64,000 bases of DNA from Branchiostoma lanceolatum (lineage: Eukaryota > Chordata > Leptocardii > Amphioxiformes > Branchiostomatidae): contig NC_089729.1 in NCBI RefSeq assembly GCF_035083965.1, forward strand, positions 17,100,964 to 17,164,963, read 5' to 3'. This document shows, one piece after another, positions 7,632-51,143 of the stretch. Both the position numbers and the translations under genes were made by a program. Under the pieces are notes generated by a model. It was not told where the DNA came from. It did no database searches and saw only the letters and a program-made list of their open reading frames with translations. Within the stretch, counting starts at the first letter, position 1; each line of letters starts with the position of its first letter.

Positions 7632-8237
7632 GTGAGATCTTAGATACTTTGTCATTAAAATGCACAAATTGCTGTCTCCAACATTTACGACTTGATAACA
7701 ATCGTGCGACAGGTGTCATTGTTGTTTCCTATATTCATATATTGTACGGGAAATACTTCACAATACATGTAGTAACTTTATTGCAAAATCATGCCCGAAG
7801 CCTATTGCAAACAAAGCAAAGCAAAACACCTGTATGCAACGCGTGCATACTTAACGAAGGAGGGCGATGAGTTATAGGAATGTATTAGTAAACCTGTTTC
7901 TACTTCTACTCTCTATTTCTATTTTCTATTTCTAATGATGCCAATTAAGTAGACCCATTTTCGCCATGCAGAGGAAAATGAATTGCCCTGCGTCTTGATA
8001 CCAGTTAGACGACTTAGACAACAACATAGCTTTTTGCTGCTCGAGCGGTAAGGTGTGGAAAGCTTGGGAAAATTTGTGTGATTTCTAAGAATAAATTGCA
8101 TCTTTCAGAATAGTATCAGCATAGATTGCAATTGACGACGTCACAGAAGAAAGTGACGTCACATGTCGTGGAGTCTCTTTTGACTGGACTATCGAACCAT
8201 CAACGTTTTCTAACGAGTGAATTGTATCCCCAGGGAA

Positions 8238-17684: not shown

Positions 17685-17769
17685 ATGGAGGTCGCTAAAA
17701 CTCCTTTCTCTCGTCTGGCACTGGCTCTACTGGTGTTCTGCCTTCTCGTGAGGAAAGCACAAGCGCAAG
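17685..17769 (+). CDS. Signal-peptide exon 1 (distal start)
   Basis: The exon encodes [20 protein letters not shown] followed by LVRKAQAQ, a standard signal peptide. It ends CAAG|GTGAGT in phase 1. The frame is open upstream, but this is the first Met giving a proper signal sequence. Confidence 0.8.
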
Positions 17770-26700: not shown

Positions 26701-29700
26701 ATTTGGCTATAAATCTTGCAGAGCAGAAACCTTGGCCTCAAGTATTACATTTCTGTTTCAATGTATGCAGAGTGGAGTCCGGAATAGGGATTGTTAAAAT
26801 TTGCTTATGCAGCAATGTATGCGAAGATAGGATCAACTTTTATCAATGGTGTTGTTTCGCACGGCTATTCATGATAAGCCCTTATTACACACTTCAGGTA
26901 GTAAGAAAGAGCGGGAAGAGATTTTGATTAGGTTATTCAATAGGTGTACTGTCACACCTGTATTTAGGTATCTGATGCATATCGTCATTTTCTGAGAACA
27001 ATGGAAGGTGAATCCCTAAGGAATCTTGGTATGGAATTACGTCACATGTCAGTTCCTTTGCTTCCTGATCGCACGGAATTCCTTGTATTTTTTCCCAGCT
27101 CGCGCCGTTACTCAAACGTCACATCACACAACTTCACACAGAGCCGCCTCAGCCAAGGCCCCACAGGTGGCACTTTGTACGCGCGGAATGTGCCTCCTTT
27201 TAATCTCGTTCCCATTTATTGAAAACGCTGCGTATTGTCCGTACAGTGAGCCGCATAAAGACTACGATTTAACAATTACACGGTCCTGGTGATCTTTTGA
27301 GTGGGACAATGGTAAATGTCGCAGATTTCTCCATCCCTTAAAGCCACAATTCTTAAAACATTCTGAGTGATGATAAGTTAGAAGGAGCCGAAAGAGCATA
27401 AAACGGTGGTTTTGATTGGTGGAGAGGCGAGCCGTTGGTATGACCGAGCGTAAGAAGGGCGGTGAATGGGCTGTGTGTGAGGGCCCGTAGAGAAGCATGC
27501 ATATATTACACGGGGCTCATCAGACAATAAAAACTAGCACTTCCGACGGGGCCTTTGTCCGGGTTGCATTCTCATGGTGATTGCCTGTGCGTCGGACCGA
27601 CATACGCGTGGTACACGCCAAGAACTCAGCCATGGCGCCGGAAAACACCCTGGTTTTGGTCGTCTGGGCGCTTCTGATGCGTCATGGGGCGTCGCAAGGT
27701 GAGTTTCAAGTCACCTGGTTGTGCTATCAACACCGTTCAGCTTAGCGCGGTCCATGTTTACTGAGCAAAGCATACCTAATTGTTGAACCCGCATTGTTAA
27801 GTTGGTGACCTTGCGGTTGTGGTACTAACCCCCCCAAATGGAAGAACAAGTCTTGTAATACAAATCAGATCGCCTCTCTGTGAAACGATTTACCGGTAGC
27901 AAGTCAAATGTCATGGAAACTTTAGTTCCACGTTTGGTGGGTGCTTGGCCCTGTGAACTCTATGCACACGGAGCGCATCTTAACAGTCTTTTCAGAGGAA
28001 AGCTTTATAGATAGATCCTTAGAGAACCGTATAACGTCGGGAATGTAATTATAGGGTTACTGAGTCCAGCATGGTGGTAGTACGGGTATAATTGTACGCT
28101 ACACAGCAGTGTTGTGGTTCTTGAGACGACGTTTATCATTATGCACAGAAAGGATTCATGGCACATCACTCCAACACGACCTAGACAAACCGACCCCTGT
28201 CGGCACTTTGCAACAATTTGTTCCTGACTTTTAAATCGCTTTGCATACATCGTGGCGGCATTGTAATCCCACCTCCCCCACGAGAGACCACAGACTTTCA
28301 AAGACTGAAAGGGGGATGGCTAGGGCGCTACTTATTAGGATAATTCCGTGGTAATTAGGGGATGATAATGGGCATAAATTGATTTTTATGGACACCATTT
28401 GCAATTAGCGACGAATTAGCAAAAGAAAGGTAGGCGCTGTCGGTGGTGTATTGTTGTTATAAACGTCTGTTTATTGAACCACTAGGGCCCTACTACCAGT
28501 GTATTAGGAATGTGTAGTATGTGATCCTCGCACAGAATGTCGGAAACTATTCGTCTTGTGCTAGAAGCAGCCACAGTTAACGAAGTTTACTGTTTACAGA
28601 AGGAGATATAATGTTGTTTAGGTGGTAAACACCAAAAGAACACTAGAGGTAAGGCAATACGTCTGTAGAACTATTTCCCGCGGCCTCTCAGTCGCAACCA
28701 TGCGTTTACAACCACAGGAAAACGGCTTAAACTCAAAATGATACACTAGGGATAAAAAGGGACAGATTTGGAAAGGCGCTACCGGCAAGGTTATCCTATA
28801 ACGAACAGTTGTTCTCTCAGAGAAAAAAATCCATGTACCATAGCGTATTGTATGACAGCCAAGTATCCACACATGCACCTCAAAATATTTGCGTGTGGGG
28901 GAAATCGAAAAATCACATGGGAAAAGAAAATCAGACGATCTTTTGATGTTTAGGGGAACATTCTTATTACGTACTAATCACAACGGCTTGTTCCCGCCAA
29001 AACCTTGGGGTTATCCGTTCCGGCATCTCTGCCCCGGATAAGGTGAGTACAGTGAGCGGGAACATCTGGTGAAAAAGTCGTCCAATTATTGAGCGTTTTC
29101 CCCCTGCGGGAGTTAGTGAGTACGAGCGCCTGTGCCTTTACAACGGTATTGCAGGTATAAGAAATCTCAGATGGCAGCCATGATACACAACAGAGGTGAC
29201 CTTTTAGGTCAGGTTTGTCAAGATCTGTCATCAGACGACAATATCGTGGTGACAAGGCTTCAGCTGGACTCCCGCGCTTTTGCACAACACCAGAATTCCG
29301 TAAAATAACGACAGCAACGATATATCGGTTCGACGTTCCCTCCGCAGCTGCTACTTGTATTCCAAACACGTTTCTTCCTTCATCTTGATTGATTGATAGA
29401 TTGCATTGACAGGTCAATGATATACTAGTAAATCTAATCAAGCTTGGACGTTTCTTGACCAGATTATCTTTTCTCTTGCCTTTTTCTTTCCTTGTATTTT
29501 TTTCCTACACGAGTTTTAAGTGACTTCTGAAAGCAGACGTTGAGGAAAAAAGTTCACAAAACAGTTGCAGATAGGTGATCGTCATGTCCTTATGCATAAT
29601 CATGAGCTGCGAAAGAATGTGGCTAATTAAGCGGAATGAATGAGACCCTTTTTCCAACGCGATGTTGATTCTCGCATGAGCCCATGTCTGTGCATTAACA

Positions 29701-32700: not shown

Positions 32701-35700
32701 AGAAAGTGGTATGGCCTTTAGTTTACCCCATTGGTCTAATTCTAAATCGGTAGTCTAAATCGGTAATCCTATCTTCTATCCCTTCTAGCCATCCCGGAGG
32801 TTGGACAGTTTGACAAACCCGGGGTGTGTCCTCAGCTGGGATTCCCTCTCCACCAATCAAGTCCCTCCTGTTCACGTGACGCATGCGTGTCAGACTTCCA
32901 CTGCCCGGGCGATCTGAAGTGCTGTGTGAACGGCTGTGGAGGCACCATGTGTGTGGACCCCAGTCCGCAACCTACCACACTGTTTGAACAAGGTAAGAAC
33001 TAATTCACATTATAACTAGAGTTAAGTAGAGTTACATATTCTTCAGGTTTGCTATGTTAGTCTAGCGATTACGGGGTCTTTTTATAGATATGAATTGGTA
33101 TTGATTTCTTTTTGTTTGAGTTGAATGTGTGATGGTTGTGTGCCGATTTATTAAAAATAGAGAGAACGCTAACGACCCCCAAAACACCACTCCCAATGAA
33201 ATGGTATGATTACCCTGCAACGTCACAAAATCAAGATGGCGGCCACCACACATGCCAACGGATCCAACAAAGGTTTTGCTACGCAAACCTGTAACTATTC
33301 TGTAGCCTGCGATTTTTCTATATCTAATGCAGTCACATGCGTCACTGGTCAATGTAGCCTCAATCATATAATATTAACCCTAATTTCTGTAGACTCTGAA
33401 GTCACTGTTGCACGTTTAAAAGAAGTATACCAAGTCCTCGCAGTGGCGCCCTATTTGATTTAAAAGGTTGTATACGACAACTAGCGCCTCTCATGGGCCC
33501 CAATAATAATTTCACAGCACTTTCGTGAAGGTTTTCAACCACAATATCATTGTCTTTTTCTTACATGATTTCTTGTTTTTGTTTGTTTGCATTGTAACAG
33601 AGGCCGGTTGCGCCAACTACGACTGTGGCATGCAGGGCGCGTACTGCTCCGGGATTGTCGCCGGGTCGGCGCAGTGTTACTGTCGGCCACGGTCGGAATG
33701 TGAGGCTAAAGATGTGAGTAAAAAAGCCTTGCGAACTGTTCAAATGTGCGAAAGTACTAGATCAGGACTCCGACTGGTTTTCAAGGGGTGTTAGGAAGGC
33801 AATCCAAATCCGCAGACAACGCAGTACCTTATAAAGGGACAGGGGGCGTCACTATCTCAAGCCTGTATATAACTGTCTCTTGTCATGTGATGATCAACAT
33901 CAAGTCACGTGACAAGAGAACTCCAAGACGAGATCTGACTGTATTAGGGTTGAAGAAGAGACAGAGCGTTCGTCTCGAAAGCTTCCCAGAGCAAACTATT
34001 TATGTTGTGTGTAAGTTTTAAATATTTGTCAAAAGTATGTTCAAATGTTATCAAGTGTATGTTGTGCACCTTTAAATAAATCAGCTTTTTGAAAGTACGA
34101 CTGCCAGTTATATTACGACCAGTGTGGCAACCGCGCCACCTAGAGACTCATTAGAATGATGCAGGTTGCACGTTGATATCATGTGATGAATATTACGTTT
34201 TGTTGCTAACGCCTCCCGCTTTTCCAGACTGTTTGCGACAAGTACGGCACGATGTACCCCAGCATGTGTCACTTTGAGGCCTTCGCCTGTGAGTGGGGCT
34301 TTCCCATGGAACCGGCACCCTGTCAGGACTACAATGTGCAAGGTATACTCATTACATAACCCAAGCAGTATTATATTAATATGCCCCTGCAGTTACAAAA
34401 ATGCCACTAGGCGGGCAAATCTACACGCCTTAATCTCCACCCAAAGAACTATCTACCACAAAAACCGTGACTATAGCTTGTCCAGAACACGAAGACATAA
34501 CCTTCTTGGCGAAGGTATTTAAATTAAGAATGTAGTACTCGCTACACTGAAGATATGTGGTAGATATAGAGACATGGTTCGTATGTCAAATTTATCGTCA
34601 TTCAATGTTTGCCTTTGCAGATATCTTCAAGTGTAAGAACGGGATCCGTTACGTCCTGAAGCCCTACATCTGCGATGGGAAAGCGGACTGTTTCGACGAC
34701 TCGGACGAAATCGGCTGCCGTAAGACTAAGTTTTTACTTTCTGTATTTCCATATCTTTTATCATTGTGTCTTCGCTATACCTGTACTTGCAATGGTCGCA
34801 AACTTAACCTTGTATTGTTTATGTTGTTCCTATAGCGTTCAAGGAACCCCCACCACCATCTCCCACCTCCACCGTGTGCAACCTTCCTCTGTACCGAGGC
34901 ACACCGTGCGCGAACGCCACCCCGCGGCTGAGATGGTATTTCAACTCCAAGAAGCGCACCTGCCTGACGTACATGCACGAGGCCTGCGGGCAGAATGCTA
35001 ATTCCTTCGGCACTCGGGACGAGTGTTTGGAGAACGTTAACGCCAAGAGATGTGTTGGTAAGTGTTGACGAATTACTGTCGTTATTTTAAATTCAGTAAA
35101 ACACTTTCATTATCCGGCAACGTGCTATAATTAACGTTGTAGTTTTTTTAGCGAAGCCTCTGGGGCGGGGCAAAAACACTCTCTGATACGTTTATAATTT
35201 TCAGTGAAGCAAACATACAGCCAGCGGATACCGGACCTGTCACAAACCACAGCATCGCCCGCTAAGGATCCCGAGGTCGTTTGTAACCTGCTGAAGGACC
35301 GAGGTCCGTGCCGAGGGCGACAAAAGAAGTACTACTACCTGTCCACACAGAACAGATGTGTGCGCTTTACGTACGGAGGCTGCGGCGGCAACGACAACAG
35401 ATTCCACACCTACATGGAGTGTATGGACTTCTGCAATGGTAAAGCAATCACTTACCCATACAGAATTACCATATGACATTCTGTATGATTTCTCTAGTAA
35501 TTCCATTCCAGGTGTTTTGAATATATTAGTTTTAAGGCAACGCCATATAGATCAGTATTGAAATAGAATTACGTGAGAACCTGAGTGAGTTTTAGATTCA
35601 GACCAAAAATGGGTGAATTTTTGCCATTCCTTGTCCAGTGATTGGAAGGAATATTAGAGATTTTTTGTGCTACAAATACTTCACGTTTGCAATGTTAGTT

Positions 35701-41700: not shown

Positions 41701-44700
41701 AGTTCTTTGAAAAAAGATAACAGAATATTCAAAGAATGGATGACTTTATAACCTTTTTTTAAAGGATAAAAGGCGTCTGTCTCTTTTTGATAAACTGCTC
41801 CCCCATGGTACTACTAGTGAAGTAACCCGAGTAAGCAAAGCGTCCCGCTAGGACCTCGCACAAATAGGCTCTTTTTGTCTAGAAATATCTGGCGTCTTAG
41901 CGGTTTTGGAAATTCAAAACCAACACCAGGAGCAAAATAAAACCATGTACAACATTTTCATGGGTAACACTGCAGCTATAATGACATTTTTTCTGCGGGG
42001 ATTTGAAAGAAGGCTCCCGAATCTTGCGGCGACCATGCGCCGTGGCCGTTATCGGCAGTGTTTCCAGACCCGCGGGACCGAAAATCGAGTGGCCGCGACC
42101 GCGTTGGACAGGTGACCGCTATAGCCTAATTCTTAATGCTTATGTCAATGGGAAAAATCCAAGGGACCGACAAAAAGTGACCACTATGGGCAGGTGGCCG
42201 CTATGCAAAGGTGACCGCTAATACAGGTTTGACTGTATGTGTATGTGTAGGTATATAATTTTTGTTCTTGTTCCACAGGTGTAGATGACGCTAAAGTAGA
42301 CGTATGGGAGACCGGAAGCGGGGATGAAGGTATTTAGAAATTTATTGACTGCTCATTAGAAAAGTGAGCCTTTGAAACAAGACTTTTTTTTCTACAGAAC
42401 ACAATAGATTTTTTCGTCCCAAGCCTTACAACGTTTTTTTCTTTGTGTCATTTTTTCAGGGCCCACAGAAGAGATGGAGTTATTTACTCCGGCACCAACT
42501 CCAGACATGGCTGTCCTCCCCACCGAACCGCCGGTTGTAGACACAACCATAACCGTCACAATCTCCACTTCCAAACATGGCCTGGTAACCACTGCCAAAC
42601 CGGGCCTGGTAACCACTGCCAAACCGGGCCCGGTCCTCAACACAACGGCCGAGCCGGGGCCTGACGTTTCCACCAGGATGCGTAAGTGGTGTTCTACTTT
42701 GTTGTTGTTTTACCCATATTCTAAACACATTTCTACTTTTTGTTAAGTACGCAAGATGATCTAACAATTAAACGATATCAGCAACGTTTTGTGTTCAAGT
42801 TGACAAACTGCTATACCTTTTAAGACAGAACTGGGGAAACAAAATACACAGTAAACGCAGTTGATGGAAGAAAAAAAAAAGGATTATGGTAACACGCTAA
42901 TTTTGTGATTTTTATATTCCAGCTACACTGTGTGAGCGTGCACGTGCGGAAGCCCTGACCGCCATCAAGGCCTCGTCCCATCACGCTAACGGCTCGCGGT
43001 CGTCCTTCGTGCCCACCTGTACCGAGGAAGGCAGGTATACACCCCGGCAGTGTTACCTGGACGGGGTCAACTGTTTCTGTGTCAACAAGCACGGCAACGC
43101 CCTGAGCGCCGTCACTCGGGTGACAGAAGGGGAGGAGCTAGAGTGTGAAGGTGGGCGTGGCTTAACGTTTCCTCATCCAATCAGGAGGGGTGTATTAGAA
43201 CGTTGAGAGATTAGCGTGTGGCCCTGAGCGCTGTCACTCGGGTGACAGAAGGGGAGGAGCTAGAGTGTGAAGGTGGGCGTGGCTAAACATTTCCTCATCC
43301 AATCAGGAGGGGTGTATTAGAACGTTGAGAGATTAGCGTGTGGCCCTGAGCGCTGTCACTCGGGTGACAGAAGGGGAGGAGCTAGAGTGTGAAGGTGGGC
43401 GTGGCTTAACGTTTCCTCATCCAATCAGGAGGGGTGTATTAGAACGTTGAGAGATTAGCGTGTGGGAACTCTCCTTAGTGCTGAAACGTTGTTCCTTCGG
43501 AAGTTTCAAGCTTACTTGGTGGGAAATCATGTATGACGAGTTAGATTAACATCTATTCTTAGTAATCTAATCATATATTCCTCACAAAAGTTAGCATTTC
43601 TAATGAGGAAACCCAAACTGTTCGTTTCAGAGCATGATTACCAAACAGCAGCGCCTCCCATAGCGGAACCACGCACTGAGCCACCGTCTACGTCTAGACC
43701 AGGTAGGTAATGTCTTTCTTTTATCCGAATTCTTCGAGAGGTAGCCCTACATCGAGTTGTCCTGTTGTTAGCCTTAGCAAATTGCGATCATAGCGGCCTG
43801 TCCGACCAATAAGCCCCTGGCAGTGGGAGATTGTGTAACAGAGGCTACCCTATTGTCAGTTTTGACACAATTTTCTTGTTCTAGTCGGTTGCTGTCCCCG
43901 CGGCAGCTCCCTGGTTCTGAGCCCTCCCGTGGTCGTGAAGGACGTGGGGCGAGGCGGATGGTACAGTTCTTGGGCACGAGACCCCCTCGATCCCACCCCC
44001 ATCTACATCTTCGACGGACCCCGGACGATCCAGAAGTACGACAACGATTACGCCATAGTGAACGACCAGGTGTCCCGTACATGGGAGCTCCCTAGCGACA
44101 TCGCCGGGAACGGCCAGGTGGTGTACGGTGGCTCGGCGTACTACAACCGGGCGGGAACTCAGGATCTCATCAAGTTTGACTTAGAGAACGAACGGGTGGC
44201 AGCCAGGCAGCAGTTGCCTTTTGCAGGTACATATAATGAATTCAACATAATTCAATGGCGTACGTTCCTTATAAGATAAGATTTTCCATCTATGAAAAAC
44301 GATGCCGACACCGTGTGTATGCATTCACCAGATACAATAGCATACATTTTTCACAGCATACAAATCACACAGAAAAACAAGTTGCGTTGTTGTGGTTACA
44401 CTGGTATAGAATACCTTGAAAACCATATTGCAATGTAATTCTTTAATCTTCTGACCATGGTTGTATCTAGTAGCAACGTTCTAGAGAAGGAAAATGCTAT
44501 TTTATATAACTGTGGAAACATATCTTCAGGTATCCAAAATTCTTACTCGTACTCTTGGGGAGGCAGTACGGATATCGACTTCGCTGTGGACGAGTACGGA
44601 CTGTACGTCATCTATGGAACACTACAGAACAGGGGCAACATAGTGGTCAGTCAGATCAACCCGCAGGACCTGTCAATCATCAACACATGGAATGCTGGGT

Positions 44701-47700
44701 AAGTCAAAGGTCGAGCCTCGCTTCTGAAAAGATATCCAAAGAACCAAAATTATCCTAAATGCAGCGGTATTGCAGATGAATGGATATTTCAATAGCCTTA
44801 AATATCATTTCTTCCCCTTTCTATGTCGAATACCCTGTAGCATTTGACCCATGAAACGTCCCATCCTCGCCCCTGAGAAAGAAAAGTCCACGGCCTACTC
44901 AATAGTACTCATAGTCACTTTTGGTGAAATGAAATGTAGTTTCCAAAATAAAGATGAAAGAGTGTTTTGTCTGCAAAGTTTGTATTGTAGCTGACACTGT
45001 TCACATGAAGGCGAGAAGAATTAAGATCATATTTCCATAATTGTTCACTCAGAAAGTTCTGGTATATTACATGGACAGTCACCAGTGTCCATGCTACAAC
45101 TGAATCCTTTCTTCTACAACAAAGTACGAAAGAGTTTATATTACTGATATCTAGCTGTCAGTAGCTCTCTCAGCTAGTAAATTTTGTCAGATTATGTTTA
45201 TCTAGTAGTTTTCCCGCCTTTAGTATCTTGCACCTGCGCACTAGGTACCAAGGGCCAAGACCCCGGATGTAGTTTTCTTCTCTGTACAGAAAGTTCTGAG
45301 TTTTGTCAATACAACACGTGAGTCCTTATGTTACTTGTGTGAGTCGTGATCTTTACCCAGTTTTAACAGCTTACTCATAACACTTCGACGTCCTCAGATA
45401 CTTCAAGCGCGCTGCGGGTAACGCCTTCATGAGATGCGGTGTTCTCTACGCTACGGACGCGCACGACTTCACGGCGAAGATTAGCTACAGTTTCGACACC
45501 CGTACCGAGCAGGAGCACGGCGGCTTGGTGCAGCTGCGCGACCCGTACCGTTACAACACCATGTTGGACTACAACCCCGCTGACAAGAAGCTGTACCTGT
45601 GGGACGAGACCTACCTTATCACGTATGACGTCATGTGTGGTGAGTTAGCTCGTTGTTTAAGTTTATCCTACATCTATTTGTTTTTATCTTGCCTTCTTTG
45701 TCCATGTACTAAATGTACATGTATGTATTGTGCATGGATTTGTTGGAAAACTCCTGTAAGTTGCTACTTTGGTACTGTTTAGTACTGGCTAGTGTACTTA
45801 AGATTAATGTTTAGTATTTATTCATGTCTACCTGCAGAAAAGGACGACCCAGCTCCGGAAGTGACGCAGGCAGCAACAACGACACCTCCTCCCACTACTA
45901 CCGTGGCCCCTCCAGCACCCACCCCACCCCCAGCCCCCCGCCCGACCACGACCCCCTCGCCCCGGGAGACCATCTGCCGCCTGAGGAAGCGGCGGGGCCC
46001 GTGCAGAGCTAAGATCAGCCGGTACTACTACCTGCCCAGCCGGGACACCTGCGTCAAGTTCCGGTTCGGAGGGTGTGGGGGGAACGCTAACAACTTCCAC
46101 AGCTGGGCAGAGTGCATGGGAACGTGCACAGGTAAAACAGGCTGAGTTCAATGTTTTGGATTAAAATTGTTGGATTAAAATTGTTGTCGAAGAACACAGT
46201 GACTGTACAACTTTCTAATGTTGTGCCTTGTGAGGGCTACTGTAAATACTACTCTCAGTTGCGACACTCTCCTTAGTTTACAACAGAATGTATTGTGTGT
46301 ACATTAAGTATAGAGGTCTTTATCTGTTGAATGACGCCAAGGGTCGTTGGAGTGGTCTTAAGCACTGTTATTCCATCTCAGCAAAAAAAAACCTACCAGT
46401 ACAAGATGCATGTCCTTGGAGCATTGTTTAAAGCCCCACTATGTAAAATTTGCAGCTTGTTTTTGTGCAGTTTACAAACATCAGACATGCCAGAAATAGA
46501 CGAATTAATGACGAAAGTACGCTAAAAAGCGGTTGTGCATGTCATTTGCATTAAGATTCGTTCAAAAGAATATTTGCAATTTTAGCGCCAAAAAGTTAGT
46601 AACATAGTGGGGCTTTAAGATGTCTAGTTAAGGACAATGGACTGAATGAGATGGAACACAGCAACCATAAAATCTGTACAAACACTTGTAATAAGAAAGT
46701 CTTCATACGATTCTGACACATCGTCACCCTGTTATATCTCCAGAGCGTGGCGGCGCGCCCAAATCTCCCCAGCCCGGCCCAGCCGTGGACCCTGCCCGTA
46801 AGACACCCCGCCCAGAGGTGCCCAGCTACATGGGTGACTCCTGTATCCTGCCCGCGGAGCCGGGGCCGTGTCAGGAGGCTCACAGCCGCTGGCACTTCGA
46901 CCCCGTCAGCAGGGTGTGTCAGGAGTTCCAGTACGGCGGCTGCGGGGGGAACACCAACCGGTTCGGGTCCTGGCGGGAGTGCACCATCAAGTGTCTAGGT
47001 GGGTAGTCATCATGACTTTTACTTAAGGTCTCATTCATGAGTTTTTTTCGCCCCATAGGCTTACATGTTATAATACGTGTTTTAGAAGGTCGCGTTTGTA
47101 ATGAAGCTACAGAAAATGCACCAATATTATTCATGTTATGTTGAGAACATTTGCCCTAGATCATGTAAAAAAATTGCCAACAGTTTCACTACATAGAATC
47201 TCTTTTCATAGGCAATTACAAACTGCACTTAGCTACAACCCCAAGAATGCAATTTCCAGCTGTAAGCGCATGACCGCATCACCTACAATGGCCGGCTGTG
47301 TACGTGCGACCTCGCGCGCGGTTGCCGAACTTTGCCTGCTAATTTCTTCAGATACAAACAGGCTTTCATCAGTTTGACGCTTGAGATCGGCTGGGCTGGC
47401 TAAAAGAGAATTTCCCATCGATATAAACACACGTTCATGCAGCCGTTCATTTTTTGGCCACGGATTCTTTTAGGTACCCACTCTTTAATACCCACTCGGA
47501 GTAATACGTGAATGAGACCTTAAATTAGATACACAATAAGCTTGGCATTTCAGGTATTCTTCCGCTGTGGTCCACACATTCGATACATGAATACATCACA
47601 TAAGAAAATATTGACGGAACAGAACAATCATATATAAGATACCAAAGACGCATAACTAGAATACGGAATTAAAAGAAATTAAAGTTCATTCAATCGCTGC

Positions 47701-50700
47701 CCCGCCATGTCATGTAGCATTTCAGTGATGAGTCATGCGGTAAAACGAAGCATTCGATAATAATCATCCACATAGAAACGTCTTTTATGATTGCATATGC
47801 ATGTTTTCCCAACTTGCATTTGATCGCTGTAGATATGAAATACTGTGAACTAGTGCTGCGTACATAAACGTAACATCAGGTACAGGTACCGGGACAGAGG
47901 TTTAGGTACAGGTCCGGCCTGTACCTGTACCTGAACAATTTGAAAAATTAACATGTGTTCCTCTGAACTACTTCAATCATGACAGAAACACAAATAAACT
48001 GTTTTCAACGTGTCAGTATCTTTATTCAAAGAACACAACTAGGTTTCCTCCCGCCAAACTCCCTTGGCCTTGCAATCAAAACTCCCGGCCTGCCTGAATG
48101 ATCTGTTACATATTACGTATGCTGTTCCAAGGTGTCGCTGTGGTCATGTTTGGTGTTGCATGAGGCCATGAGGTCAGGAGATCAGCACAAAATAAGCACA
48201 TACTTGATGTGAATTTATATCGGTACAGTACCGGTACTTCATGATCCGGCATTTTGGACCTGTACCTAATCAATTTTTACGGTACAGTACCGGCACACAG
48301 CACCGGTACGCAGCACTACTGTGAACGTGTTTGACGAGTTTGACTCTATGACATATCGTACCTACAGGTCAACAGGCGGTCCACTGTGGGGGCTGTCAGC
48401 ACGAGAGGCACGGGCTCCACAGGGGTTACTGCAACAACCAGTTCGGTGAGAATCTTTTCAGTTCCTCGTTGAAAATATATCTTTCATATATGTTATAACT
48501 CTTTTTAAGTTTGTGAAGGTTAGACATCCAGGTAAACAATATATAAAGAGTATTCAAACTCTACAACTGGATAAGAATTCGGAGATTTATTTCCGGACGT
48601 TTCGAGTGACATCATCACTCTTCTTCAGCGTCACTAAAATGAACTAGCAGAACTAACCAGTACTTATTTATTATAACTAGAAAAACCGGTTTTACATGGC
48701 AAATCACACAGTCATGCATAAGAGGTATTGAAATGTAAAACAAGATGGGAACTCTTTTTATTCACTGAAGAATATGTGACTTAGAGATTTGGGGTGATTT
48801 AAAGGTCTCTACTACATTAGATATGAGCATGATTAGGGAAATACAGAACTCGATAATTTGTTTGTTTGTTAATTTGTTTGTGCCTTTGTTTATTCTCGAA
48901 AAAAGCTCTAATCGGCCATCTTGGCCACTTTTCATAGAGGTCGAGATGAGGGCATGTCAAGGGGTCAACATAACAATAAATAACTAAAGCTTGGTCAACC
49001 AAGGTGACTCAAAATTATATCAATAATACAAAGAATAGATTAATAAATAATTGACACGTTTTTCTGACAACAAGCTTTTTAATTTTTCATCTCCATGATA
49101 TCCCCTCCTCAGTCATGACCGGCAGGGTGTCCAAGTTGGAACTGACGCCATCTTGGCGCGTCGTTACCATGGTGACGAACAGTGACATGATCAGTAAGCG
49201 AGGCGGGCTGAGGTCTATCGAGTACCAGGGGCGGGACCTGGCGGTACAGGTGCTCCTGCCGAGGAACTACAGGAACCAACACGGGTGCCCATGCTACGAT
49301 GTGGCCAGAGGTTTGTGTTGTGCATATTCTCTCATTATTAAACCTTATAACAACCGATTGACCTTTCACCTTAATATACGATCAATCACCATGACAACGC
49401 GTATGTGAAAAGTCTAACAACTTCACGTCCCAGGTTCATGAAATTTACATTTGAAAAATATGATTTAGAAAAAAAGTGGCGAATTTGGGGCCCCCTCCGT
49501 TACTCTGTTATCATCTCTTTCCAATATAGTAGACCTACAGCAACTCAGTAACAGTACATTATGCTCTTCTTCACTACTACGAGGGTCCATGTCACTTTCT
49601 CATTAGCAAAACTGTAATATCTTCGATATAGTCCACACTTTCATTCAATATAGGTAGATAACATTCACTTTTCTTTTATCCATTTTGTGTTTAAGTATGT
49701 ATATGGACATTTTATACTTGTTTAATATTTATATCTTTTAGTAGAAGGCGTTACATAAGTAACTGTGCTTTTTGCCTGATACTCGTAAAATATATGTGAA
49801 TAAGGTTGTTTAACCTTGGATTTACAAAGTTTGAATTTGGTTTGCTTTGGAGAGCCTTTTTTTCTAAAAATGGGCGTGGCCTTATTTATCTTGATGACGT
49901 AATCATGACGTCATGCTAATTTGCATAAATTATTACCTTGCTATAAGGTACTACCTGAAAAAAATTAGGTTGAGGAAGGTTTATAAAGCTTAAGAAAGGT
50001 TTTTTTCAATAACATCCCCAAACTCCTCAGCCACCCTTCAACGGTGCCATAAGCTTTCTTTCAATATTTTTGGTACGAGGATGTTTCAGTACTTTTCTTT
50101 GTTGTTATCTGTAAGATGTAAGGTGAAATCTACATCTAAATCTACATTGGGTTGCCCCCAAATAACCCCTTCAGAGGCAAAGTAGAGGGGGTAGTTGAGG
50201 TCCCGGGCTAAGGCGGGCAGGCCTCCAGCCTGGCACGGAACGACTCAACGGTGGGAGCCGTCGCAACCGTGCCAGACAGGGTGTTCCACTGTGGGATGGT
50301 ACGGGGAAAGAAAGAGTGTTTATATGTGTCGGAAATGCAAGCTAACATAAGTCTGTTTTTCCTCCAGGAGCGGAGTACGTGATGATGGGCCGTGTTGACG
50401 GGAACGGGTACGGGATGGTGGACGAGAAGGGATACATGGCGGAGCTCAACAACAAGTACGCCCGGCGACTGCAACAACTCAAGGCCAACCCCTTCAGCTG
50501 TTCCTACTCCTACCAAGATACCTCACGCCAAGGTTCCAACCCATATTCGCGGAACCCCGGATCTAACCCCCGGAATCGCCGACCTAACCCTCAGAGCCCC
50601 CGATCATACCCTCAAAATCCTCAACCGAATCCGTACCCTGCGAATCCTCGTTCTTACCCGCAGAACCCCCAACCCTACCCACAGAACCCCCAACCCTACC

Positions 50701-51143
50701 CACAGAACCCCCAACCTTACCCTCAGAACCCCCAACCCTACCCACAGAATCCTCAACCGCAGAACCCTCAACCCTACCCACAGAATCCCCGGTCAAACCC
50801 TCAAAATCCCCAACCCTACCCACAGAACCCCCAACCCTACCCACAGAATCCTCAACCTCAGAACCCCCAACCCTACCCACAGAATCCTCAACCTCAGAAC
50901 CCACAACCCTACCCACAAGATCCCCGGTCAAATCCTCAAAATCCCCAACCATACCCTCAGAACTCTGGATATAACCCATACAGTCCTGGGTCTAACCCAC
51001 AATACCCAGGATCATATCCCCAGGACCCCAGGTCCCACTCTCAGTACCCCGGCTATAACCCAGGCCCCAGACACCAGTCAGCACCTAACACCGGCGCTAG
51101 AGGGCGCTCCTCTTACACATATAAAAGTGCTCAAAAGAGATAA
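17685..51143 (+). CDS. Giant secreted mosaic protein (LDLa, WAP, Kazal, Kunitz, Tg1, OLF, NTR), WFIKKN-like
   Basis: The gene has 33 coding exons with two signal-peptide exons (17685 and 27632). From the second start the frame is 1823 aa. Its order is signal peptide, WAP, follistatin/Kazal, LDLa, Kunitz x2, thyroglobulin type-1 x5, linker, Tg1, Thr/Pro linker, Tg1, olfactomedin, Kunitz x2, NTR and a Pro/Gln/Asn tail. From the first start six more LDLa repeats precede WAP (2136 aa). Most exons are symmetrical phase 1-1, and every junction keeps frame. WAP, Kazal, paired Kunitz and a terminal NTR is the vertebrate WFIKKN plan; those proteins bind GDF8/GDF11 and inhibit proteases. Here LDLa stands where WFIKKN has Ig, and a Tg1/OLF block is inserted. 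The product should be extracellular. It is unproven whether the 5' LDLa block is the same gene or a separate one. Confidence 0.75.
17770..20415. other. Intron 1 of the mosaic gene
   Basis: The intron is 2.6 kb and AT-rich. No exon, RNA gene or clear inverted-repeat element was recognised in it. Confidence 0.5.
20416..20572 (+). CDS. LDLa-1 and first half of LDLa-2
   Basis: After ACGACAG the exon reads [20 protein letters not shown] then [16 protein letters not shown], a complete six-cysteine LDL-receptor class A repeat with the calcium-binding D..SDE. The start of a second follows (GKFMCEDG). It ends GGAGG|GTAAGG in phase 2, so LDLa-2 is split by the intron. Confidence 0.88.
20764..21008 (+). 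repeat. Dispersed ~260-bp repeat, copy 2
   Basis: It is homologous to the copies at 10009, 33043 and 35668. It ends with ggtttgctatgcaaacctgt, only about 23 bases before the next exon. Confidence 0.75.
21032..21345 (+). CDS. Second half of LDLa-2, linker, LDLa-3
   Basis: The phase-2 acceptor TTTCAG|C completes LDLa-2 ([23 protein letters not shown]). A Thr/Pro-rich linker of about 45 residues follows, then LDLa-3 ([36 protein letters not shown]). The donor is TGCC|GTAAGA, phase 1. Confidence 0.88.
21366..21700 (+). repeat. Dispersed repeat headed by ttatctccatgaaaaatgga
   Basis: It starts with the small palindrome tctccatgaaaaatggaga and a (TTTG)n run (about 21405-21475). A body with gatttggtatgtgg-type and gggccccctggtatgtgacc sequence follows. 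Similar copies lie at 21956-22320, 56449-56910 and 60446-60810. It is non-coding. Confidence 0.7.
21738..21863 (+). CDS. LDLa-4
   Basis: The phase 1-1 exon encodes [20 protein letters not shown] then [17 protein letters not shown], a full LDLa repeat. The donor is CAAG|GTAACG. Confidence 0.88.
21956..22320 (+). repeat. Dispersed ttatctccatgaaaa-type repeat, second copy
   Basis: It is diverged but collinear with the copy at 21366 (ttatctctatgaaaattgagata, then gatgatatttgatatgtg, a C run, gcagcagaacttc). It lies in the intron after LDLa-4. Confidence 0.6.
22356..22480. mobile_element. MITE with TACTCTCCAAG ends
   Basis: The inverted ends are tactctccaagtagaggt and acctctgcttggagagta. The nine-base duplication accaaatgg flanks it (22347-22355 and 22481-22489). 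A catatg-containing interior is also partly symmetrical. It is non-autonomous. Confidence 0.75.
22544..22739. mobile_element. hAT-like MITE, TAGTCTCTACCAG family
   Basis: The ends tagtctctaccag and ctggtagagtcca are near-inverted. The duplication gaatctcca is at 22535-22543 and 22740-22748. The interior (ctatttggccaatttctact) matches the complete relative at 36355-36575. Confidence 0.7.
23077..23213. repeat. Hairpin repeat around actcaagcaactggat
   Basis: The arms ttactcaagcaactggata... and ...tatccagttgcttgagtgac pair with the inner motif cagtcagacgtttcagac. Related fragments occur near 10430-10510, 36604-36680 and 48540-48630. Confidence 0.7.
23375..23491 (+). CDS. LDLa-5
   Basis: The phase 1-1 exon encodes [20 protein letters not shown] then [16 protein letters not shown]. 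The acceptor is CACCACAG|AG and the donor TGTG|GTAAGT. Confidence 0.88.
24098..24304 (+). CDS. LDLa-6 and linker
   Basis: The phase 1-1 exon encodes [20 protein letters not shown] then [15 protein letters not shown] and a Thr-rich linker with possible N-glycosylation sites (QNTTS, GNITL). The donor ACTG|GTAGGA can join the WAP exon at 32789 in frame. A possible short terminal exon after a strong acceptor at 24508-24509 (stop at 24575-24577) is an alternative ending. Confidence 0.85.
24578..27490. other. Long intron or intergenic gap between the LDLa block and second start
   Basis: No further exon with a recognisable domain was found, and no clear AATAAA occurs between 24578 and 27490. The sequence is AT-rich and mostly unique-looking. 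Confidence 0.4.
27498..27631 (+). promoter_or_regulatory. Candidate internal promoter and 5' UTR
   Basis: A TATA-like catatatta lies at about 27499-27508, roughly 125 bases upstream of the ATG at 27632. The next exon is a signal-peptide exon, so a transcription start is expected here. No further core-promoter evidence can be seen. Confidence 0.4.
27632..27698 (+). CDS. Signal-peptide exon 2 (proximal start)
   Basis: The exon reads [20 protein letters not shown] then SQ, ending CAAG|GTGAGT in phase 1. This mirrors exon 17685-17769, including the ..Q|G junction. It can be the first exon of a 1823-aa product. Confidence 0.75.
27699..32788. other. Long intron before the WAP exon
   Basis: The 5.1-kb intron holds the hAT-like element at 29718-29909 and a GA-rich simple repeat near 31930-31970. 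No other exon was recognised. Confidence 0.5.
29718..29909. mobile_element. hAT-like foldback MITE with perfect 8-bp duplication
   Basis: The ends tagcctcctgtgcaggcttc and gaagcctgcacaggaggcta are perfect inverted repeats. The flanks agtccaca (29710-29717 and 29910-29917) are identical 8-bp target duplications. The interior has repeated gagggagttgtgtagcc in both orientations. Confidence 0.85.
32789..32992 (+). CDS. WAP (whey acidic protein) domain exon
   Basis: The acceptor is CTTCTAG|CC. The exon encodes [14 protein letters not shown], then [20 protein letters not shown] and NGCGGTMCV. The eight cysteines in the spacing of the four-disulphide core identify WAP. This is the first domain of WFIKKN proteins. 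Phase 1-1. Confidence 0.9.
33043..33293 (+). repeat. Dispersed ~260-bp repeat, copy 3
   Basis: It is homologous to the copies at 10009, 20764 and 35668. It runs from ttcaggtttgctatgttag to acgcaaacctgta, in the intron after WAP. Confidence 0.75.
33601..34342 (+). CDS. Follistatin-like/Kazal domain (two exons)
   Basis: Exon 33601-33713 (phase 1-0) encodes [20 protein letters not shown] then [15 protein letters not shown]. Exon 34228-34342 (phase 0-1) encodes [20 protein letters not shown] then [12 protein letters not shown]. Together they form a follistatin/Kazal module with the VC...G..Y...C core, as follows WAP in WFIKKN proteins. The inner phase-0 intron is the only one of that class in the gene. 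Confidence 0.85.
34621..34719 (+). CDS. LDLa-7 (short)
   Basis: The exon encodes [20 protein letters not shown] then [11 protein letters not shown]. It is a compact LDLa repeat with the D.SDE calcium motif. The first cysteine of the usual six appears absent or displaced. It occupies the position of Ig in vertebrate WFIKKN. Phase 1-1. Confidence 0.85.
34836..35057 (+). CDS. Kunitz domain 1 (atypical)
   Basis: A Pro-rich linker is followed by [30 protein letters not shown], then AC, EC and RC. The six Kunitz cysteines are present, but the last spacing is longer than usual. The P1 residue after Cys2 is Ala, so trypsin inhibition is unlikely. Phase 1-1. Confidence 0.85.
35205..35438 (+). CDS. 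Kunitz domain 2
   Basis: After a linker the exon encodes [20 protein letters not shown], then [17 protein letters not shown] and ECMDFC. The spacing is canonical and P1 is Arg (GPCR), fitting a trypsin-like protease inhibitor. Phase 1-1. Confidence 0.92.
35668..35931 (+). repeat. Dispersed ~260-bp repeat, copy 4
   Basis: It is homologous to the copies at 10009, 20764 and 33043, and ends acgcaaacctgta. It lies in the intron before the first thyroglobulin exon. Confidence 0.75.
36074..36280 (+). CDS. Thyroglobulin type-1 domain 1
   Basis: The exon encodes [28 protein letters not shown] and [17 protein letters not shown], then C. The CWCV and QC motifs define Tg1 modules, many of which inhibit cysteine or aspartic proteases. 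Phase 1-1. Confidence 0.93.
36355..36575. mobile_element. Complete hAT-like MITE, TAGCCTCTACCAG family
   Basis: The ends tagcctctaccaggc and gcctggtagaggcta are perfect inverted repeats. The duplication gatcagca flanks them (36347-36354, 36576-36583). The inner arms gtagaaactggccaaatag / ctatttggccaatttctact also pair. Relatives lie at 22544 and, truncated, at 3403. Confidence 0.85.
36990..37208 (+). CDS. Thyroglobulin type-1 domain 2
   Basis: The exon encodes [33 protein letters not shown] and [17 protein letters not shown]. The acceptor is ATACAG|CC and the donor TCAG|GTAAGT. Phase 1-1. Confidence 0.93.
37361..37576 (+). CDS. Thyroglobulin type-1 domain 3
   Basis: The frame has no Met and is easily overlooked. 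It encodes [40 protein letters not shown] and [18 protein letters not shown] replaces the usual CWCV. The acceptor is ACTCTTAG|TT and the donor TCAG|GTATCA. Phase 1-1. Confidence 0.9.
38003..38195. mobile_element. MITE with cggtcacatt ends
   Basis: The end gcggtcacattcgtcgta and the far end tacaacaaatgtgaccgg are imperfect inverted repeats, with internal cgtcgtacga motifs. The ggtcacat end recalls the element at 2506-2708. Borders are approximate. Confidence 0.55.
38207..38617 (-). mobile_element. tRNA-derived SINE
   Basis: Read on the minus strand, the head has an A box (ggtggcgtagtggcag) and a B box (gggttcgaatccgg) at tRNA spacing. A body of about 300 bases follows and the element ends in a (CAAAA/CAAA)n tail near 38207-38245. 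A short ctagct repeat at both ends may be the target duplication. RNA polymerase III would transcribe such an element. Confidence 0.8.
38671..38901 (+). CDS. Thyroglobulin type-1 domain 4
   Basis: The exon encodes [40 protein letters not shown] and [15 protein letters not shown]. The acceptor is ATCACAG|CC and the donor TCAG|GTCTGT. Phase 1-1. Confidence 0.92.
39173..39382 (+). CDS. Thyroglobulin type-1 domain 5
   Basis: The exon encodes [29 protein letters not shown] and [17 protein letters not shown]. The acceptor is TTCTCAG|GA and the donor GAAG|GTGGGG. Phase 1-1. Confidence 0.92.
39513..39578 (+). CDS. Short linker exon
   Basis: The 66-base phase 1-1 exon encodes [20 protein letters not shown], with no domain. 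The acceptor ATTCCCAG|AT and donor GAAG|GTATGG are good, and the exon keeps the frame. It can be skipped without a frameshift. Confidence 0.65.
39770..40830 (+). CDS. Linker and thyroglobulin type-1 domain 6 (two exons)
   Basis: Exon 39770-39964 is a Thr/Glu/Pro linker followed by [20 protein letters not shown], the first Tg1 cysteine segment. Exon 40684-40830 gives [20 protein letters not shown] and [19 protein letters not shown] replaces CWCV. Unlike the other Tg1 units this one is split by a phase-1 intron, which holds the foldback element at 39981-40224. Confidence 0.85.
39981..40224. mobile_element. Foldback MITE starting at a splice donor
   Basis: The ends ctccaagcagatctacacgg and ccgtgtagatctgcttggag are inverted repeats. 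The right arm contains a doubled ggctgactggagc...gccccgtgtagatctg unit. A 16-base near-identical repeat flanks it: gtgggtcagaaataat (39965-39980) and gtaggtcagaaataat (40226-40241). The left flank begins exactly at the GT donor of the preceding exon. Confidence 0.8.
41143..42235. mobile_element. pogo-like non-autonomous DNA element, TA-flanked
   Basis: The outer ends read CAGTCAAACCTGCCTATAGC and, inverted, gaccgctaatacaggtttgactg. TA lies on each side. A second copy of the end (acagtcaaacttgg) is at 41303, suggesting a nested or duplicated insertion. Repeated gaccgctatgg-type motifs lie near both ends. No transposase frame is visible. Assignment to pogo rests on the end sequence and the TA target. 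Confidence 0.6.
42279..42329 (+). CDS. Micro-linker exon
   Basis: The 51-base phase 1-1 exon encodes [17 protein letters not shown]. The acceptor is TTCCACAG|GT and the donor GAAG|GTATTT. The SGD-type acidic stretch could be a glycosaminoglycan site; this is speculative. Confidence 0.6.
42460..42681 (+). CDS. Thr/Pro-rich mucin-like linker exon
   Basis: The exon encodes a linker rich in Thr, Pro and Val, with a doubled GLVTTAKPG unit, no cysteines and likely O-glycosylation. The acceptor is TTTTCAG|GG and the donor ATGC|GTAAGT. Phase 1-1. Confidence 0.75.
42923..43150 (+). CDS. Thyroglobulin type-1 domain 7
   Basis: The exon encodes [40 protein letters not shown] and [10 protein letters not shown]. 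It is a diverged Tg1 with CFCV. The donor GAAG|GTGGGC is copied twice more by a 122-bp tandem repeat just downstream. Phase 1-1. Confidence 0.88.
43100..43465. repeat. 122-bp tandem triplication spanning an exon end and splice donor
   Basis: Three near-identical 122-base units start at 43100, 43222 and 43344. Each includes the last 51 coding bases of the Tg1-7 exon, the donor AAG|GTGGGC and about 70 intron bases. Only the first copy continues an open frame from the exon. Confidence 0.95.
43631..43702 (+). CDS. Pro-rich linker exon
   Basis: The 72-base phase 1-1 exon encodes [20 protein letters not shown] then TSRP. The acceptor is TTTCAG|AG and the donor CCAG|GTAGGT. Confidence 0.65.
43885..45639 (+). 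CDS. Olfactomedin domain (three exons)
   Basis: The exons are 43885-44226, 44530-44698 and 45398-45639 (junctions phase 1 and 2). Exon 1 has [31 protein letters not shown] and DLIKFDLE. Exon 2 has [15 protein letters not shown] and INTWNAG. Exon 3 has [13 protein letters not shown] and [20 protein letters not shown]. These are the standard blocks of the five-bladed olfactomedin propeller, including the paired cysteines. The domain mediates extracellular protein contacts and is not part of vertebrate WFIKKN. Confidence 0.92.
45838..46131 (+). CDS. Thr/Pro linker and Kunitz domain 3
   Basis: A mucin-like linker of about 45 residues precedes [36 protein letters not shown] and ECMGTC. P1 is Arg (GPCR), so inhibitory activity is plausible. 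The acceptor is CTGCAG|AA and the donor ACAG|GTAAAA. Phase 1-1. Confidence 0.92.
46428..46618. mobile_element. TTAA-flanked MITE
   Basis: The ends agccccactatgt and acatagtggggct are perfect inverted repeats, each next to TTAA (46428-46431, 46615-46618). TTAA duplication is typical of piggyBac and Kolobok families. Non-coding. Confidence 0.75.
46744..46998 (+). CDS. Kunitz domain 4
   Basis: After a Pro-rich linker the exon encodes [36 protein letters not shown] and ECTIKC. The P1 position is Gln (GPCQ), unusual for a trypsin inhibitor. The donor is CTAG|GTGGGT. Phase 1-1. Confidence 0.92.
   Translation, partial: SVAARPNLPSPAQPWTLPVRHPAQRCPATWVTPVSCPRSRGRVRRLTAAGTSTPSAGCVRSSSTAAAGGTPTGSGPGGSAPSSV
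47023..47523. mobile_element. TTAA-flanked MITE, 0.5 kb
   Basis: The ends ggtctcattca and tgaatgagacc are inverted and bordered by TTAA on both sides. The interior has no convincing ORF. The element begins 25 bases after the end of the Kunitz-4 exon. Confidence 0.75.
47851..48318. mobile_element. hAT-like element, TAGTGCTGCG ends, 8-bp duplication
   Basis: The ends tagtgctgcgtac and gtacgcagcacta are inverted. The flanks ctgtgaac (47843-47850 and 48319-48326) are identical. The interior is rich in ggtacaggtacc motifs. A partial second copy lies near 52763-52865. Confidence 0.82.
48368..51143 (+). CDS. NTR (netrin-like) domain and Pro/Gln/Asn-rich tail (three exons)
   Basis: Exon 48368-48445 gives [16 protein letters not shown], exon 49113-49310 gives [14 protein letters not shown] and GCPCYDV, and exon 50368-51143 gives [20 protein letters not shown] and [14 protein letters not shown]. 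The pattern C..C...YC...F...GRV...CPC...MG.VDG...C is the WFIKKN-type NTR domain, the WFIKKN C-terminus. Here a tail of about 200 residues follows (from about 50520). It is built of repeats such as PQNPQPYP and ends in ..YTYKSAQKR. The tail has almost no charge, cysteine or hydrophobic anchor. Confidence 0.88.
50130..50350 (-). pseudogene. Antisense LINE reverse-transcriptase C-terminus
   Basis: On the minus strand the frame reads [20 protein letters not shown] then [20 protein letters not shown] and stops. This is the typical last segment of LINE ORF2. It lies in the last intron, immediately before the acceptor of the NTR/tail exon at 50368. Confidence 0.8.
50520..51090 (+). repeat. Coding minisatellite: ([10 protein letters not shown])n
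   Basis: Degenerate 12-30-base units of cagaacccccaaccctaccca code for the Pro/Gln/Asn/Tyr tail. The imperfection of the units suggests an old but still length-variable array. Confidence 0.9.

What the first reader, a model, noticed from the sequence alone, without database searches (positions are those of the whole stretch)
27632..51143. WFIKKN-like protein rebuilt with LDLa, seven thyroglobulin domains and an olfactomedin propeller
WAP, follistatin/Kazal, paired Kunitz and a C-terminal NTR domain appear in WFIKKN order. The NTR carries the family pattern (GRV... CPC... MG.VDG). LDLa sits where vertebrates have Ig. A block of seven Tg1 plus OLF separates the first Kunitz pair from a second pair next to NTR. 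I know of no described protein with this combination. It packs modules tied to serine-protease (Kunitz, WAP, Kazal) and cysteine-protease (Tg1) inhibition into one chain that may also bind TGF-beta ligands.
Basis: partly seen in the sequence, partly recalled or inferred. Interest (0 to 1): 0.8.

Follow-up and report, generated by a model that had tools for sequence, protein, structure and literature searches.

The report
WFIKKN-related mosaic extracellular protein gene
An animal gene, probably from a lancelet, seems to encode one large secreted protein that joins parts related to the muscle-growth regulator WFIKKN to a block of seven thyroglobulin-type repeats and an olfactomedin domain, so it is an unusual combination of familiar parts rather than a new kind of part.

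Summary
Of 25 introns, 23 are phase 1. The follistatin module, missed by Pfam, matches WFIKKN2 best among solved structures (E 0.0053). WAP-follistatin and Kunitz-NTR align as pairs with recalled WFIKKN1/2. Kunitz 2 and 3, flanking the Tg1-OLF block, are sisters (97/94), so the block probably sits inside a WFIKKN-related gene. It is not filed as WFIKKN: no Ig, four Kunitz, about three times the length; lancelets are reported to have a canonical WFIKKN (PMC6071037). Open points: six upstream LDLa domains with their own signal peptide (17,685-24,304) join in frame and may be the true 5' part (2,119 aa); a weak second start lies at 45,633; and the B. floridae "thyroglobulin-like" XP_002607132 (PMC3464141) may be the same gene. 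Species and transcripts are untested.

The parts
27632..27698 (+). exon 1: start codon and signal peptide ([22 protein letters not shown]), phase-1 donor
   Evidence: model; one of 4 signal-like start exons found on both strands of the window, one of the 2 strong ones
32789..32992 (+). exon 2: WAP domain
   Evidence: Pfam PF00095 E 1.3e-9
33601..34342 (+). exons 3-4 (33601-33713, 34228-34342): follistatin/Kazal module, split by the only phase-0 intron
   Evidence: best PDB match WFIKKN2 follistatin domain 6maa, E 0.0053; not reached by Pfam
34621..34719 (+). exon 5: LDL-receptor class A domain
   Evidence: PF00057 E 4.5e-5, 24.0 bits vs cut-off 24.1
34836..35057 (+). exon 6: Kunitz 1 (residue after the second Cys is Ala)
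   Evidence: PF00014 E 6.3e-13
35205..35438 (+). exon 7: Kunitz 2 (Arg after the second Cys)
   Evidence: PF00014 E 3.3e-16
36074..39382 (+). exons 8-12 (36074-36280, 36990-37208, 37361-37576, 38671-38901, 39173-39382): Tg1 repeats 1-5, one per exon
   Evidence: PF00086 E 9.9e-96, 5 stretches
39513..39578 (+). exon 13: linker
   Evidence: splice sites and phase only
39770..40830 (+). exons 14-15 (39770-39964, 40684-40830): linker and Tg1 repeat 6
   Evidence: PF00086 E 1.2e-17
42460..42681 (+). exon 16: Thr/Pro-rich linker
   Evidence: splice sites, phase and coding score
42923..43150 (+). exon 17: Tg1 repeat 7
   Evidence: PF00086 E 5.5e-15
43631..43702 (+). exon 18: linker
   Evidence: splice sites and phase only
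43885..45639 (+). exons 19-21 (43885-44226, 44530-44698, 45398-45639): olfactomedin domain
   Evidence: PF02191 E 7.3e-72; best PDB match noelin 4xat E 8e-53
45838..46131 (+). exon 22: Pro/Thr-rich linker and Kunitz 3 (Arg after the second Cys), sister of Kunitz 2
   Evidence: PF00014; tree support 97/94
46744..46998 (+). exon 23: Kunitz 4 (Gln after the second Cys)
   Evidence: PF00014, E 2.2e-37 together with Kunitz 3
48368..51143 (+). exons 24-26 (48368-48445, 49113-49310, 50368-51143): NTR domain, then a tail of about 200 residues with YPQNPQP-like repeats and the stop codon
   Evidence: PF01759 E 3.1e-8; tandem repeats
17685..24304 (+). uncertain: signal-peptide exon 17685-17769 and LDLa exons 20416-20572, 21032-21345, 21738-21863, 23375-23491, 24098-24304; a neighbouring gene or the 5' part of this one
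   Evidence: PF00057 in 5 of 5 LDLa segments scanned, six stretches in all; in-frame joint model of 2,119 aa

Best explanation
One gene on the + strand encodes a secreted, disulfide-rich mosaic protein built on a WFIKKN-related frame (WAP-follistatin at the N end, Kunitz-NTR at the C end). Its Ig position is filled by LDLa. A cassette of seven Tg1 repeats and an olfactomedin propeller has come to lie between two duplicate Kunitz exons, by exon shuffling through phase-1 introns. Shown by sequence: domain order, frame and phase continuity, the follistatin module's nearest solved relative, and the Kunitz 2-Kunitz 3 sister pair. Inferred: it works outside the cell as a scaffold. Kunitz 2 and 3, with Arg at P1, would inhibit trypsin-like proteases. 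Some Tg1 repeats may inhibit papain-like proteases or simply act as binding spacers. The follistatin and NTR modules may hold GDF/TGF-beta-family ligands, as in WFIKKN1. The olfactomedin propeller and the repeat tail would serve adhesion or matrix anchoring.
For: Domain matches. Frame-continuous 26-exon model, 25 of 25 introns GT-AG, 23 of 25 phase 1. Coding score over 23 of 26 exons, trained in-sample. A signal-like start codon and exon in 0 of 24 introns scanned, 13,001 bp. WFIKKN2 is the best PDB hit for the follistatin module. With recalled WFIKKN1, blastp joins Kunitz 3-Kunitz 4-NTR (E 1.6e-19) and WAP-FS (E 4.2e-13); phmmer gives up to 38.8 bits for WAP-FS and 69.5 for Kunitz4-NTR. Kunitz 2 and Kunitz 3 are sisters, 97/94, in a tree of 19 Kunitz domains. 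WFIKKN1: follistatin domain binds mature myostatin, NTR the propeptide (PMC3906830, passages).
Against: No transcript or protein evidence. No exon encodes two different module types, so the linkage rests on phase and spacing, and phase-1 compatibility is common among extracellular modules (family knowledge). A weak signal-like start at 45,633 (donor 6.5 bits), whose ATG lies in exon 21 and so escaped the intron scan, would give a separate Kunitz-Kunitz-NTR gene. The upstream LDLa array may belong to the gene. Kunitz 4 scores higher against COL6A3 (58.9 bits) and several other Kunitz proteins than against WFIKKN1 (48.7) in PDB. In the tree Kunitz 4 and Kunitz 1 are unplaced, 13 of 16 inner branches are open, and Kunitz 2-3 fall near the second TFPI and first bikunin domains (90/74, open), not with WFIKKN Kunitz 2. 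The NTR alone finds no NTR relative in PDB at E up to 10. The NTR fold model was too poor to use (mean pLDDT 39.2).
Confidence: 0.6

Rival explanations
1. The gene is longer: transcription starts at 17,685 and the chain begins with six LDLa domains, giving 2,119 aa. Exon 1 at 27,632 would be an alternative first exon or not an exon.
For: In-frame join with one stop at the end. The last upstream LDLa exon ends in a phase-1 donor at 24,304 (7.5 bits). Of 16 acceptors scoring 6 or more in 24,305-32,780, read in phase 1, none opens a terminal exon with strong coding score (best 6.0 over 21 aa at 24,510). The length is nearer the roughly 2,400 aa of XP_002607132 (PMC3464141).
Against: Exon 27,632-27,698 is one of only two strong signal-peptide start exons in the window. 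The only AATAAA/ATTAAA in 24,305-32,788 (+) is at 27,526, just before it. A short terminal exon, as at 24,510, cannot be excluded. LDLa of exon 5 is 35-48% identical to the six upstream LDLas, which are 28-61% identical to each other, so no special closeness.
Confidence: 0.3
2. Two or more adjacent genes were strung together, for example WAP-FS-LDLa-Kunitz-Tg1-OLF and a separate Kunitz-Kunitz-NTR gene.
For: A weak signal-like ORF begins at 45,633 and ends in a phase-1 donor at 45,720. Lancelet gene models are known to suffer prediction errors that create false architectures (PMC4967905, passages).
Against: That start lies inside the last OLF exon, 205 bp before the Kunitz 3 exon, so its promoter would overlap coding exons. 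It is one of 2 weak hits over both strands of the window. The 24 introns scanned hold no such start. Kunitz 2 and 3 are sisters across the supposed boundary.
Confidence: 0.15
3. The architecture was assembled independently of WFIKKN: the resemblance reflects common pairing of WAP, Kazal, Kunitz and NTR modules.
For: Kunitz 4 is not specifically close to WFIKKN1 in PDB. NTR similarity is weak alone (10.5 bits to recalled WFIKKN1, 23.1 to WFIKKN2). Modules sit in their own exons, unlike vertebrate and Branchiostoma WFIKKN genes (PMC3427181, section 5).
Against: The follistatin module is nearest to WFIKKN2 among solved structures by sequence, and two linked pairs align over their junctions with recalled WFIKKN. 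Sea urchin and acorn-worm WFIKKN genes also have most modules separated by introns (PMC3427181, section 5 read).
Confidence: 0.2

Closest known systems
WFIKKN1/WFIKKN2 (GASP-2/GASP-1) and the lancelet WFIKKN (XP_002607180)
   Same: WAP, follistatin/Kazal, Kunitz pair and NTR in the same order; Kunitz directly before NTR; WFIKKN2 holds the closest solved relative of the follistatin module
   Different: No Ig; LDLa instead; four Kunitz; seven Tg1 plus OLF between the Kunitz pairs; 1,806 aa against 482-657 aa for deuterostome GASPs (PMC3427181); 26 exons; repeat tail
B. floridae thyroglobulin-like protein XP_002607132 (PMC3464141)
   Same: Large protein with several Tg1 repeats and no Tg2, Tg3 or ChEL; a locus of about 39.5 kb; may be the same gene (not tested: sequence not available here)
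   Different: Published as about 2,400 aa with six Tg1; other domains not mentioned in the section and passages I read
Thyroglobulin
   Same: Tandem Tg1 repeats; highest-scoring PDB hit for Tg1 1-5 (E 8.5e-81), summed over many repeats, and PDB holds few other Tg1 families
   Different: No Tg2, Tg3 or ChEL match in the segments scanned; 0 of 24 tail tyrosines follow an acidic residue
Noelin / latrophilin / myocilin olfactomedin proteins
   Same: OLF domain, best PDB match noelin 4xat E 8e-53
   Different: OLF is internal here, between Tg1 and Kunitz modules
Papilin
   Same: Large matrix protein with several Kunitz domains; proposed relative of GASP (PMC3427181)
   Different: No Ig or thrombospondin match in the segments scanned; papilin's thrombospondin repeats are recalled

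Membership tests
WFIKKN/GASP | WAP domain first after the signal peptide | tested here: inconclusive
   WAP present; first under the 27,632-start model, but preceded by six LDLa under the 17,685-start model
WFIKKN/GASP | follistatin/Kazal module of WFIKKN type | tested here: met
   best of 4 PDB matches is WFIKKN2 6maa, E 0.0053
WFIKKN/GASP | Ig (IGc2) domain between follistatin and Kunitz | tested here: not met
   LDLa there; the introns on either side are 278 and 116 bp
WFIKKN/GASP | two Kunitz domains | tested here: not met
   four Kunitz in two pairs
WFIKKN/GASP | C-terminal NTR after Kunitz, related to WFIKKN NTR | tested here: inconclusive
   NTR present; linked Kunitz4-NTR 68.6 and 69.5 bits to recalled WFIKKN1 and 2, but no tree was built and no PDB NTR hit for the domain alone
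WFIKKN/GASP | binds GDF8/GDF11 | not testable with these tools
   needs protein
thyroglobulin | Tg1 repeats | tested here: met
   seven
thyroglobulin | Tg2, Tg3 and ChEL regions | tested here: not met
   no such Pfam match in the 8 segments scanned; model residues 713-758, 850-918, 1001-1022 and 1601-1806 were not scanned
thyroglobulin | Glu/Asp-Tyr hormone acceptor site | tested here: inconclusive
   0 of 24 in the tail, 7 acid-Tyr pairs elsewhere in 1,806 aa; rule from PMC11730217 (passages)
olfactomedin-domain family | complete OLF domain | tested here: met
   PF02191 profile 5-245 of 246, E 7.3e-72

The most novel reading that the evidence does not exclude
This gene is the lancelet thyroglobulin-like protein locus (ortholog of XP_002607132), and its product, a WFIKKN-derived mosaic and not a thyroglobulin, is an iodinated endostyle protein: the Tg1 block handles trafficking or protease resistance and the tyrosine-rich YPQNPQP tail takes up iodine. 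That would answer which protein carries iodine in a chordate without a thyroglobulin gene.
Probability: 0.06. Interest if true: 0.85.

Novelty: new variant of a known kind. Interest (0 to 1): 0.5.

Why it matters
It would show a growth-factor/protease regulator family being rebuilt by placing a Tg1-olfactomedin cassette between duplicated Kunitz exons, with phase-1 introns still marking the joins. It may also correct the reading of a published lancelet 'thyroglobulin homolog' as a WFIKKN-related mosaic, which bears on the open question of the iodinated substrate in the amphioxus endostyle.

Tried and rejected
NTR structure prediction from a single sequence gave mean pLDDT 39.2; it was not used for a fold search. 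PDB search with the NTR alone gave 3 matches at E up to 10, none an NTR protein; a profile with recalled WFIKKN1/2 NTRs reached PCOLCE 1uap (E 4.1e-4), meteorin-like (0.032) and meteorin (0.079), but that profile contains recalled sequences and gives no tree. Kunitz 4 as a WFIKKN marker was rejected: COL6A3 and others score higher (best 60 of 110 shown). Kunitz 1 and 4 are unplaced in the tree, which warns of long branches. Rfam found nothing at its gathering thresholds. Five ORFs outside the gene and the LDLa array (four +, one -) were scanned by Pfam: none reached a curated cut-off, two had sub-threshold matches; the other ORFs outside the gene were not scanned. Origin of LDLa exon 5 from the upstream array: no special closeness. 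Transglutaminase targeting of the tail (15 QNP motifs) is a recalled idea, not tested. Paper searches: at least four of thyroglobulin, olfactomedin, Kunitz, domain architecture, amphioxus: 0 papers; 'thyroglobulin type' + olfactomedin + Kunitz: 0 papers; this only says that the held open library has no such text. Listings were seen, their papers not opened. No public eukaryote sequence collection was available, and the viral and prokaryote collections were not searched.

Full report
What is there. The stretch 27,632-51,143 (+) holds 26 exons that splice in frame into 1,806 aa with one stop at the end; all 25 introns are GT-AG, 23 are phase 1, one is phase 0 (inside the follistatin module) and one phase 2 (inside OLF). 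I chose the splice sites by hand for frame and site quality, so this is a model, not a transcript; the splice-site scores were trained on the same introns. Pfam confirms WAP, LDLa (0.1 bit under its cut-off), Kunitz x4, Tg1 x7, OLF and NTR (8 segments; linkers and tail not scanned). All seven Tg1 units have six cysteines.

Is it more than chance? OLF at E 7e-72 and Tg1 at E 1e-95 leave no doubt about those modules. A codon score trained on the model itself marks segments above 12 over 23 of 26 exons; exons 1, 13 and 18, all short, did not stand out. Between the last upstream LDLa exon (24.3 kb) and 32.8 kb the highest segment scores 14.8, against about 16-87 in frame for most of the model exons covered, so weak exons there cannot be excluded.

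One gene or several. No exon carries two module types, so continuity rests on phase, spacing and absence of other starts. Introns 2-25 range from 116 to 1,629 bp and 0 of these 24 holds a signal-peptide-like start exon. A scan of both strands of the window found four such exons: 17,685 and 27,632 (+), both strong, and two weak ones, 45,633 (+) and 13,842 (-). The one at 45,633 starts inside the last OLF exon, so the intron scan missed it, and would precede Kunitz 3; I count it against the one-gene model, weakly. Kunitz 2 and Kunitz 3 are 54% identical and sisters in a tree of 19 Kunitz domains (97/94, the only starred branch; 13 of 16 inner branches are open). They lie on opposite sides of the Tg1-OLF block, which ties the two halves together.

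Upstream. Six LDLa modules (five exons, 20,416-24,304) follow a signal-peptide exon at 17,685-17,769. The last has a phase-1 donor, and joining it to the WAP exon gives an open 2,119-aa chain. I found no convincing terminal exon for a separate LDLa gene; the best candidate is 21 aa at 24,510. Against the join, exon 1 at 27,632 looks like a real start. I lean to two genes, about two to one.

Relation to WFIKKN. In the PDB sequence search the follistatin module matched four sequences at E 10 or better: WFIKKN2 first (0.0053), FSTL1 second (0.16), then 7kbu (2.1) and BM-40 (2.9). Single modules are weak: WAP 17.3 and 16.5 bits, FS 23.2 and 17.5, NTR 10.5 and 23.1, and the NTR has no NTR relative in PDB at E up to 10. 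Kunitz 4 prefers COL6A3 and others to WFIKKN1. An Ig domain is absent between follistatin and Kunitz 1, and the introns there (278 and 116 bp) are too short for a usual Ig exon (length recalled).

Literature. PMC3427181 (section 5 read, other passages): deuterostome GASPs are 482-657 aa; B. floridae has the canonical order, with two introns beyond the vertebrate one; [quoted passage not shown] PMC6071037 and PMC4967905 (passages): canonical WFIKKN is conserved in lancelets (no transcript was found in B. lanceolatum), and lancelet architecture differences are put down largely to prediction errors. PMC3906830 (passages): in WFIKKN1 the follistatin domain binds mature myostatin and the NTR the propeptide. 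PMC3464141 (section 9 and passages): B. floridae XP_002607132, about 2,400 aa, six Tg1, no Tg2/Tg3/ChEL, at a 39.5-kb locus. Its size and Tg1 count suggest it may be this gene, perhaps with the LDLa array; its accession number is close to that of the lancelet WFIKKN, which is only a hint. PMC13078365 (section 11 and passages): amphioxus makes thyroxine without expressing a TG gene, and no amphioxus Tg1 protein has been shown to be a TG ortholog. PMC11730217 (passages): hormone acceptor tyrosines follow Glu or Asp; none of 24 tail tyrosines do, which speaks against hormone synthesis there though not against iodine uptake.

Mechanism. From anatomy, this is a secreted scaffold. The residues after the second Kunitz cysteine, read from the sequence, are Ala, Arg, Arg, Gln for Kunitz 1-4; that this is P1 is recalled BPTI numbering. 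So 2 and 3 are the likely trypsin-type inhibitors. Ligand binding by follistatin/NTR, cathepsin inhibition by Tg1, and adhesion through OLF and tail are inferences from family knowledge.

Species. No genome is held for the window.

Noticed in passing
17685-24304 (+): Array of six LDLa domains with its own signal-peptide exon; separate gene or 5' part of the reported one.
   Followed up: partly
43099-43465: A 122-bp unit in three copies repeats the 3' end and donor region of the Tg1-7 exon; could offer alternative donors, and 122 is not a multiple of three.
   Followed up: no
50655-50963: Tandem coding repeat YPQNPQP; the last 216 residues hold 63 Pro, 39 Gln, 29 Asn, 24 Tyr and 15 QNP motifs.
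   Followed up: partly
45633-45720 (+): Weak signal-like start ORF overlapping the end of the OLF exon, phase-1 donor.
   Followed up: partly
8214-8564 (+): ORF with a GIGSGSGK stretch, recalled as resembling histamine N-methyltransferase; Pfam found nothing at E 0.1.
   Followed up: partly
62402-62704 (+): ORF with a sub-threshold sialyltransferase match (Glyco_transf_29, E 0.085).
   Followed up: no
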